Below, piece by piece: positions 30,566 to 32,759 of a stretch of 33,742 nt of DNA. The translations under genes were made by a program, and so were the position numbers. This DNA is from Bacteroidota bacterium (lineage in GTDB: Bacteria > Bacteroidota > Bacteroidia > Bacteroidales > JAIFNL01): positions 1 through 33,742 of the forward strand of contig JAIFNL010000119.1 in assembly GCA_020047755.1 (NCBI GenBank), given 5' to 3'. The notes under the pieces are model-generated. The model had not been told where the DNA came from, ran no database searches, and was given only the letters and a program-made list of their open reading frames with translations. Position 1 is the first letter of the stretch. Each line of letters starts with the position of its first letter.

Positions 30566-30606
30566 AAAGGCTATTCAAACAATAAAAAAATTGAATAGCC
30601 TTTTTC
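30566..30606 (+). terminator. Intrinsic terminator after the Bax-inhibitor gene
   Basis: AAAGGCTATTCAA / TTGAATAGCCTTT perfect 13-bp stem, T-run. Confidence 0.8.
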
Positions 30607-30637: not shown

Positions 30638-31666
30638 ATGATAGAAAAACAGAACAATCCGCACGATAAATTTTTTAAGGAAATATTTTCGAGAAAACAA
30701 GAAGCTCAATCTTTTATCAATGATTTTTTACCAAAACAACTAGTTGATAAACTGGTTTTTGATGATTTTGAAATTGACTCAAATTCATACATTGATGAAA
30801 CACTGCAAGAAAGTTTTGCCGATATTGTTTATAATTGTACCTATTCGAAGCAAAAAATCAAAATAGCATTCCTTTTCGAGCACAAAACCTTTCAAGACAA
30901 AAATATTTATTTACAGCTATTGCGCTATATGCTAAATATTTGGGAAACAGAGAGAAAGGACAAAAAAAGACAACTAACTGTTGTTTTGCCCATTGTAATT
31001 TACCACGGCAGAAAGCAGTGGAAACTAAACTCTTTTTATGCTAATTTTGGTAAAATAGATAGCGAATTGCACGAATTTATTCCCCATTTCAGCTATTTAT
31101 TGCAAGATTTACACGCAGCAACTCAAACCGAAATACTCGAAAAATACCATTCGATAATTTTGCAGACAAGTTTCTTGCTTATGAAAAATATTTTTGATAA
31201 ATTTGCATTGATTGAAAATATAGATAAAATTTTTGAGAAAGTATATCTTTCGGAACAAATAACAGACAATCAAGTAATTCAATCTTTATATTATTATCTG
31301 TTTCATACTAATTCAGCCGAACAATACGTTGAATTAACAGAAAAAATCAGAAAACTCCCAAATTCAGAAAAAGATATGAAAACAATAGCAGATGTTCTAA
31401 TTGACAAAGGAAGACAAGAAGGAAGACAAGAAGGATGGCAAGAAGGAAGACAAGAAGGATGGCAAGAAGGACGACAAGAAGGACGACAAGAAGGTATCCA
31501 AATTGGACATGAAAAAACGGCTTTTCGTTCGGCGTGTATTATGTTGTTGGAAAATTTTGATATTCAAATGATTGCACGAGTTATGAATTTAAAAATAGAA
31601 CGTGTTTTGGAATTGAAAAAGCTCGTGGAAAAATATGGTGCCAATGTTTTGGAAATGGAACTTTAA
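30638..31666 (+). CDS. Rpn family (recombination-promoting nuclease / PD-(D/E)XK, Transposase_31-like) protein
   Basis: NPHDKFFKEIFSRKQEAQSFINDFLP; ESFADIVYNCTY...FLFEHKTFQDKNIYLQLLRYMLNIWE (D...ExK core); LPIVIYHG; C-terminal GRQEGxQEG repeats. Confidence 0.9.
   Translation: MIEKQNNPHDKFFKEIFSRKQEAQSFINDFLPKQLVDKLVFDDFEIDSNSYIDETLQESFADIVYNCTYSKQKIKIAFLFEHKTFQDKNIYLQLLRYMLNIWETERKDKKRQLTVVLPIVIYHGRKQWKLNSFYANFGKIDSELHEFIPHFSYLLQDLHAATQTEILEKYHSIILQTSFLLMKNIFDKFALIENIDKIFEKVYLSEQITDNQVIQSLYYYLFHTNSAEQYVELTEKIRKLPNSEKDMKTIADVLIDKGRQEGRQEGWQEGRQEGWQEGRQEGRQEGIQIGHEKTAFRSACIMLLENFDIQMIARVMNLKIERVLELKKLVEKYGANVLEMEL
31409..31492 (+). repeat. 12-bp in-frame tandem repeat, 7 units (GRQE/GWQE)
   Basis: GGAAGACAAGAA, GGATGGCAAGAA and GGACGACAAGAA units. 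Confidence 0.95.
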
Positions 31667-31701
31667 TACTTAAAAAAGTTCTGAATTTAGAAAAAAAAGA
31701 T

Positions 31702-31953
31702 ATGAAAACAATAGCAGATTTTCTAATTGATAAGGGACGACAAGAAGGAATTCAAATGGCTTCGGCTCGTATTGGTTGTGTAATGTTATTGGAAGGATTT
31801 GATATTGAAATTACTGCACGAGTTGCAAATTTGAAAATAGAACGTGTTTTGGAATTGAAAACGCTTGTGGAAAGTTATGGTGCAGATGTTTTAAAAATTC
31901 CAAATTTAACTTTTATCTTAGATTTTGGTAAAAAGCGGACAAGCAAATTATAG
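31702..31953 (+). CDS. Freestanding paralogue of the Rpn C-terminal domain (short Rpn-like protein or gene remnant)
   Basis: MKTIADFLIDKGRQEGIQ...IGCVMLLEGFDIEITARVANLKIERVLELKTLVESYGADVL aligns to residues 247-342 of the preceding Rpn protein. Confidence 0.75.
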   Translation: MKTIADFLIDKGRQEGIQMASARIGCVMLLEGFDIEITARVANLKIERVLELKTLVESYGADVLKIPNLTFILDFGKKRTSKL

Positions 31954-31990: not shown

Positions 31991-32027
31991 AAAAGCTATT
32001 TCGTAAAAAAAAGAAATAGCTTTTTTT
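31991..32027 (+). terminator. Intrinsic terminator after the Rpn C-terminal copy
   Basis: AAAAGCTATTTC / GAAATAGCTTTT perfect 12-bp stem, T run. Confidence 0.8.
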
Positions 32028-32054: not shown

Positions 32055-32759
32055 ATGGAAAATTACATTAATAAACTCGAACTAGAATACAAAAAGTTTC
32101 AAAATACAGAATATGCCCTTTCGCAATCGGCGTATATGCGCAATATGTTTGCTTATTTTGGACTAAAATCAGAAAAAAGGCGCGAAATTTCAAAAACTTT
32201 TTTGAAAGAAAACGGAAAACCAAAACAAGAAAATTTATTAGAATTAATAAAATTACTTTGGCAAAAACCACAACGCGACTTTCAATATTTTGCACTCGAT
32301 TTGCTCGAAAAGCAAGCAACAAAATTTAGAGAAGAAGACTTACAAGTAATTGAATACATGATAGTTGAGAAATCGTGGTGGGATACTGTCGATTTAATAG
32401 CTGCAAAGCTGGCAGGAGAATATTTTAAGAAATTTCCCGAAAAAACAATTCCTACAACCCATAAATGGATGGCTTCGGGAAATATTTGGCTTCAACGTTC
32501 GGCACTTTTATTTCAGCTCAAATACAAAAAAAACACCGATACTGCCTTGCTTTTCAGTTATATAACTGCTTTAAAAGATTCAAAAGAGTTTTTTATTCGC
32601 AAAGCAATTGGTTGGATTCTTCGGGAGTATTCAAAAACAAATGCACAGCAAGTTATTGATTTTGTGAACCAAACAAAGCTTTCGGTTTTAAGCGAAAAAG
32701 AAGCCTTAAAATGGCTCAATAATAACAAAATGAAAGCGAATTACCTAAATTCTAAATAG
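32055..32759 (+). CDS. DNA alkylation repair protein (AlkD-like HEAT repeat)
   Basis: YFGLKSEKRREISKTFLKENGKP, LWQKPQRDFQYFALDLL, EKSWWDTVDLIAAKLAGEYF, IRKAIGWILREYSKTN. Confidence 0.9.
   Translation: MENYINKLELEYKKFQNTEYALSQSAYMRNMFAYFGLKSEKRREISKTFLKENGKPKQENLLELIKLLWQKPQRDFQYFALDLLEKQATKFREEDLQVIEYMIVEKSWWDTVDLIAAKLAGEYFKKFPEKTIPTTHKWMASGNIWLQRSALLFQLKYKKNTDTALLFSYITALKDSKEFFIRKAIGWILREYSKTNAQQVIDFVNQTKLSVLSEKEALKWLNNNKMKANYLNSK

What the first reader, a model, noticed from the sequence alone, without database searches (positions are those of the whole stretch)
30638..31953. Rpn nuclease with candidate intragenic start plus a freestanding tandem copy of the same C-terminal domain
The Rpn protein has an internal ATG at 31376 (Met247) in the context GAAAAAGATATGAAAACAATAGCAGATnTTCTAATTGA. 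The separate downstream ORF at 31702 begins with almost exactly the same sequence (GAAAAAAAAGATATGAAAACAATAGCAGATTTTCTAATTGA), encodes a homologue of residues 247-342, and has its own terminator at 31991-32027. In characterised E. coli Rpn systems, a short C-terminal protein made from an internal start acts as antitoxin to the full-length nuclease (established knowledge). Here that short protein seems to exist both as a potential intragenic product and as a physically separate gene. That would be an unusual toxin + dedicated-antitoxin configuration of a putative anti-phage or recombination nuclease.
Basis: partly seen in the sequence, partly recalled or inferred. Interest (0 to 1): 0.75.

Follow-up and report, generated by a model that had tools for sequence, protein, structure and literature searches.

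The report
Rpn nuclease with detached RpnS copy
A DNA-cutting bacterial toxin gene is followed by a small separate copy of its own tail, the part that in E. coli acts as the built-in antidote; this layout is already known from E. coli (rpnE–ypaA) and recurs in about one in five related genes surveyed here, but the separate copy usually has a tail length that should not fit its neighbour.

Summary
ORF 30638-31666 is a PF04754 Rpn nuclease with an intact PD-(D/E)XK site. Its Met247 aligns, one residue off, with the experimentally proven internal start of E. coli RpnA (Met244). ORF 31702-31953 is a tandem copy of the tail beginning at that Met; its predicted fold matches the RpnA-S crystal structure. 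The layout is not new: Zhong et al. 2023 describe it in E. coli (rpnE followed by ypaA/rpnES, protein detected). Here I show that it recurs: 16 of 82 distinct complete Rpn loci carry a downstream tail copy, none a partial copy upstream, none a nuclease-only copy. A second locus in the same genome has it. Several copies are clearly under purifying selection (sister locus dN/dS 0.03); the window copy only weakly (0.39-0.43), and it has lost its ancestral stop. The 'dedicated antitoxin' reading is weakened: copies differ from their neighbour in number of 4-residue repeats in 10 of 12 measurable loci (window: 28 residues) and in 12 of 12 E. coli strains, although a one-repeat mismatch is published to abolish inhibition. 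Best reading: a stand-alone RpnS paralogue with its own, probably non-cognate, specificity. New member of a known kind.

The parts
30566..30602 (+). intrinsic-terminator-like hairpin that isolates the pair from the upstream BaxI-like gene
   Evidence: -15.0 kcal/mol, z -5.3, followed by T-run
30638..31666 (+). Rpn nuclease (RpnL), 342 aa; PF04754 residues 7-208; invariant D62, E81-H82-K83, Q93, Y97
   Evidence: PF04754 E 1.3e-42, TIGR01784 above cut-off; invariant residues in 54-sequence alignment; AF2 pLDDT 92; dN/dS 0.09 against the congeneric orthologue
31376..31663 (+). predicted intragenic RpnS: tail from internal ATG (Met247), 96 aa
   Evidence: aligns within one residue with RpnA Met244, the proven internal start; a Met at this junction in 35 of 56 aligned Rpn proteins
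31407..31494 (+). 12-nt (4-residue, GxQE) tandem repeats, 7.3 copies, in the long tail helix
   Evidence: helix 243-304 in the model
31669..31701 (+). 5' part of the duplicated block, homologous to the codons just before Met247, A-rich, no start codon
31702..31953 (+). stand-alone RpnS paralogue, 83 aa, one GRQE repeat; residues ~68-83 are a new C-terminal extension after loss of the ancestral stop
   Evidence: three-helix model pLDDT 78; Foldseek hit 7TH0 RpnA-S, TM 0.78 on the target, 33% identity
31991..32024 (+). intrinsic-terminator-like hairpin ending the pair
   Evidence: -12.7 kcal/mol, z -4.9, T-run after

Best explanation
This is an rpnL/rpnS toxin-antitoxin gene-within-gene followed by a tandem-duplicated, stand-alone rpnS gene, the arrangement known as rpnE-ypaA in E. 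coli. The long protein is a PD-(D/E)XK DNA nuclease that dimerises through its helical tail. The same tail made alone from Met247 is the cognate antitoxin. The downstream gene, co-transcribed and with its own start, makes a second RpnS-type dimerising helical protein. Because its repeat helix is seven 4-residue units shorter than its neighbour's, its most likely target is not the neighbouring nuclease but Rpn forms with a matching short helix (an earlier allele, paralogues, or incoming Rpn nucleases), so it adds a second inhibitor specificity. Shown here: homology, start site, fold, recurrence, selection on sister loci, repeat mismatch. Inferred: expression, inhibition, and target.
For: Rpn family and active site. 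Internal start conserved and aligned with RpnA Met244. Same layout at C57 in the same genome (25 nt gap, copy starts at the same internal Met) and in 16 of 82 complete Rpn loci, downstream only. In the intact loci examined the copy's ATG coincides with the parent's internal Met, mostly 5-38 nt after the parent stop. E. coli rpnE/ypaA positive control shows the same. Copies constrained: C57 14 synonymous against 2 nonsynonymous changes; L126, L104, L026, L138 also reject a neutral copy. Fold match to RpnA-S 7TH0. Repeat mismatch in 10 of 12 loci, always whole 4-residue units, and in 12 of 12 E. coli strains.
Against: Constraint on the window copy itself is weak (dN/dS 0.39-0.43; neutral-copy simulation P 0.02-0.05; 0.08-0.16 given no stop) and it has a novel, low-confidence C-terminus. 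The matching rule was shown for one protein, E. coli RpnC. The E. coli mismatch (0 of 12) is no lower than independent repeat numbers predict (expected 1, P(0) 0.27), so it shows absence of matching, not avoidance. No expression data.
Confidence: 0.5

Rival explanations
1. Dedicated cognate antitoxin: ORF2 supplies extra RpnS that dimerises with and blocks the neighbouring nuclease, decoupling antitoxin dose from toxin translation.
For: Same operon-like layout, same start site, RpnS fold; E. coli RpnES from ypaA is made in cells; no repeat mismatch at L036 and L136.
Against: Seven-unit repeat mismatch here and mismatches in 10 of 12 loci and 12 of 12 E. coli strains, while one extra repeat abolished RpnC inhibition.
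Confidence: 0.25
2. Decaying duplicate: a tandem-duplication by-product without function.
For: Window copy has weak constraint, lost its stop and gained a disordered tail; broken copies exist at L131 (frameshift), L088 (truncated) and L019 (8-nt insertion).
Against: No stop or frameshift in the aligned region; strong constraint at C57, L126, L104, L026; copies are only downstream tails, never upstream or nuclease-only, and begin at the internal start.
Confidence: 0.25
3. Repeat-length cassette: the copy is kept (or keeps arising) as a recombination donor that lets the toxin/antitoxin tail switch repeat number.
For: Three sampled E. coli strains lack ypaA but carry a copy-type tail on rpnE; the L026 copy is a mosaic that looks recombined with paralogue L036; parent-copy dS (0.34-0.47) is below orthologue dS (0.89), so the copy is younger or was converted.
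Against: Observed switches are deletions that lose the copy; no case of back-conversion was demonstrated; does not by itself explain protein-level constraint.
Confidence: 0.12

Closest known systems
E. coli rpnE-ypaA (rpnES) and rpnC-rpnCS (Zhong et al. 2023, PMC10327210)
   Same: Full-length Rpn followed within tens of nt by a separate gene for its tail starting at the internal start; separate copy derives from its own neighbour; in rpnE/ypaA the repeat number differs between the two.
   Different: Bacteroidota host; longer GxQE repeat array; copy has an extra ~16-residue C-terminus; no expression data.
RpnA/RpnAS intragenic toxin-antitoxin (PDB 7TH0)
   Same: Nuclease plus internal start at the aligned position; three-helix tail.
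   Different: K-12 RpnA has no tandem repeat array in its tail and no separate copy next to it.
DUF4351 (PF14261) stand-alone proteins
   Same: Described as separate RpnS genes in some species.
   Different: ORF2 does not match PF14261.

Membership tests
Rpn family (PF04754/COG5464) | Transposase_31/YhgA-like nuclease domain | tested here: met
   E 1.3e-42, 146 bits against a cut-off of 21; TIGR01784 above cut-off
Rpn family (PF04754/COG5464) | PD-(D/E)XK catalytic residues | tested here: met
   D62, E81, K83, Q93 invariant in 54 sequences
RpnLS gene-within-gene toxin-antitoxin | internal start at the nuclease/tail junction | tested here: met
   Met247 aligns within one residue with RpnA Met244; translation itself not testable here
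RpnLS gene-within-gene toxin-antitoxin | 4-residue repeats in the first tail helix | tested here: met
   12-nt repeat array 31407-31494, helix 243-304
RpnLS gene-within-gene toxin-antitoxin | RpnL toxic, RpnS blocks it | not testable with these tools
   needs expression experiments
stand-alone RpnS (ypaA type) | separate downstream ORF starting at the internal-start residue | tested here: met
   same in the E. coli control
stand-alone RpnS (ypaA type) | RpnS three-helix fold | tested here: met
   AF2 pLDDT 78; 7TH0 is Foldseek rank 2 of the PDB, TM 0.78 on target, but E 1.3 (short protein)
cognate antitoxin of the neighbouring RpnL | same number of 4-residue repeats as RpnL (rule from RpnC) | tested here: not met
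   28 residues shorter
DUF4351 (PF14261) | match to the Pfam model | tested here: not met
   no PF14261 match at E<=1

The most novel reading that the evidence does not exclude
Stand-alone RpnS genes are selected to be non-cognate to the nuclease beside them: they are inhibitors of Rpn nucleases with other repeat lengths (immunity to rival or incoming Rpn alleles) and double as donors for switching the repeat length of the toxin.
Probability: 0.25. Interest if true: 0.65.

Novelty: new member of a known kind. Interest (0 to 1): 0.4.

Why it matters
It extends the rpnE-ypaA arrangement to Bacteroidota with a quantified recurrence and selection evidence, and it raises a directly testable puzzle: if RpnS only blocks an RpnL with the same repeat number, what are the constrained but mismatched separate copies for?

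Tried and rejected
Chance similarity: rejected (E 1e-24). Read-through or frameshift of one gene: rejected, different frame plus an intact parent stop and a complete second tail. Orthologue-based dN/dS of ORF2: not possible, the congeneric orthologue contig (86% identical, syntenic with the BaxI-like gene) stops inside the repeat and the downstream gene is not in that assembly. Sequence search of PDB: uninformative. PADLOC: only a weak 'putative invertase' hit on the repeat tail. Foldseek of full-length ORF1: no significant match. Class-wide PF04754 search: only 5 of 395 genomes positive, so useful for rarity only. PF12784 paralogues in the same genome (18 matches): none with a downstream copy in this test. 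Defence-island context: neighbours look metabolic/housekeeping.

Full report
Observation. Both ORFs and both start contexts are as described. ORF1 is a PF04754 Rpn nuclease (E 1.3e-42; TIGR01784) with D62, E81, K83 and Q93 invariant among 54 homologues. Its full-length model has pLDDT 92, with one continuous helix 243-304 that begins just before Met247 and contains the GxQE repeats. ORF2 starts at the codon that corresponds to Met247, but the DNA homology begins about ten codons earlier, so the duplicated block carries the start context with it. The copy lacks 28 residues of repeat helix, and its ancestral stop is lost. Hairpins with T-runs bound the pair at 30566-30602 and 31991-32024, and none separates the two ORFs.

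Internal start. Aligning the window with 53 surveyed Rpn proteins and E. coli RpnA and RpnE puts Met247 one residue from RpnA Met244 (KES-L-MTIAERL), the start proven by mutation in Zhong et al.. A Met occurs at this junction, within a residue, in 35 of 56 aligned proteins (counted by eye). The congeneric orthologue (86% identity, dN/dS 0.09, dS 0.89) keeps SEKDMKTIADVLIDKGRQEGRQE unchanged.

Recurrence. In the same genome, contig C57 has a second Rpn gene followed after 25 nt by an 87-residue tail copy starting at the same internal Met. For 82 distinct complete Rpn ORFs from the genome collection and relatives (and genome-search loci) I searched up to 3 kb on either side with the tail and with the nuclease domain separately (tally). 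Eighteen gave a downstream tail match; two of these (L067, L080) are short and I discount them, leaving 16. The only upstream tail match (L112) is a whole tandem gene. The nuclease-domain matches downstream (L026, L036, L069, L088) are 5' extensions of the tail copy, plus a short one at L069. Ten copies are intact ORFs (window, C57, L036, L026, L104, L084, L138, L136, L116, L126). L044, L069 (N gaps), L039 (contig end) and L089 cannot be fully judged; L131 is frameshifted and L088 truncated. Intact copies start at the parent's internal Met, mostly 5-38 nt after the parent stop (L026, L036 and L126 lie further, 83-138 nt). Most are from Bacteroidota MAGs; L089 is Desulfocicer. The survey was seeded with Bacteroidota sequences, so the one-in-five rate applies to these relatives, not to all Rpn genes.

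Selection. Parent tail against copy gives dN/dS 0.03 at C57 (14 synonymous, 2 nonsynonymous), 0.10 at L126, 0.21 at L104, 0.25 at L026, 0.28 at L138, 0.36 at L084 and 0.43 at the window; pooled pN/pS 0.34. A simulation with the copy neutral and the parent constrained is rejected for C57 (none of 2000), L126 (0.0015-0.004), L104 (0-0.001), L026 (0.0025) and L138 (0.003-0.0075), and only marginally for the window (0.02-0.05 jointly with no stop). These copies are therefore genes in general; the window copy is likely but not proven to be one.

Fold. ORF2 is predicted as a three-helix protein (pLDDT 78; residues beyond ~70 poor). Foldseek against the PDB puts 7TH0, E. coli RpnA-S, second (TM 0.78 on the target, 33% identity over 48 columns; E 1.3, not significant by itself for so short a chain).

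Known precedent. Zhong et al. state that RpnS can be made from within rpn or from a separate gene, cite ypaA downstream of rpnE (tagged protein detected) and rpnCS downstream of rpnC, and conclude that each arose from its own neighbour. I recovered the MG1655 locus as a control: rpnE stop, 12 nt, then ypaA ATG at the internal-start residue, though RefSeq calls ypaA a pseudogene. The layout is therefore known. I could not check the paper's supplement for Bacteroidota examples.

Repeat mismatch. Zhong et al. found that adding one 4-residue repeat to RpnCS or to RpnCL abolishes inhibition and that matching restores it. In the 12 loci here where it can be measured, the copy differs from its neighbour in 10, always by whole 4-residue units: window 7 fewer, C57 6 fewer, L126 10 fewer, L069 6 fewer, L039 7 fewer, L104 1 fewer, L026 1 fewer, L084 3 more, L138 2 more, L116 1 more; L036 and L136 are equal. 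In 12 sampled E. coli strains with both genes (chosen in part for unusual length), rpnE and ypaA never match: (0,1) x2, (5,1) x3, (5,2) x2, (1,4) x2, (8,4), (5,0), (6,2). Chance predicts about one match (P of none 0.27), so the data show no selection for matching rather than avoidance. I found no comment on this in the parts of the paper's main text I read. By the published rule these copies should not neutralise their neighbours, which is the main reason I prefer a second-specificity reading over the dedicated-antitoxin one. Three sampled strains with a single gene carry a copy-type tail on rpnE, so parent and copy do recombine, a fusion state the paper also notes.

Verdict. The sequence observation is right and its family assignment is right. 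The arrangement is known in E. coli and common among these relatives. The mismatch between conserved copies and that rule is the part worth a specialist's attention.

Noticed in passing
L013 1172-2537 (G000 C57): Second Rpn + stand-alone tail copy in the same genome, with much stronger purifying selection (14 synonymous, 2 nonsynonymous) than the window pair; a better experimental subject than the window locus.
   Followed up: yes
L014 1-843 and L016 2-286 (G000 C114, C307): A further Rpn gene runs off its contig in the repeat, and another contig starts with the same 91 nt at the internal Met; probably another locus, perhaps also with a duplicated tail that broke the assembly.
   Followed up: partly
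L019 3-1285 (G000 C100): An Rpn-like protein without a Pfam hit is followed by a near-identical copy of its tail; an 8-nt insertion breaks the frame but a 66-aa tail ORF remains; the copy has ATG where the parent has TTG.
   Followed up: partly
L018 (G000 C30): A PDDEXK-like ORF has a tail-like match upstream of it rather than downstream.
   Followed up: no
L150-L167: The genome carries 18 PF12784 (PDDEXK_2) matches, a large expansion, none with a downstream tail copy in this test.
   Followed up: partly
L026 1046-1291: The stand-alone copy is a mosaic: its middle matches the tail of paralogue L036, its end matches its own parent, suggesting recombination between Rpn loci.
   Followed up: no
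L173, L174, L181 (E. coli): Strains without ypaA carry a ypaA-type tail (ADLAANNH) on rpnE, i.e. the parent tail was replaced by deletion/fusion.
   Followed up: partly
window 32055-32759: DNA alkylation repair (AlkD-like, PF08713) gene directly downstream of the pair; 63% identical homologue in a congener, where ORF2 itself has no match.
   Followed up: no
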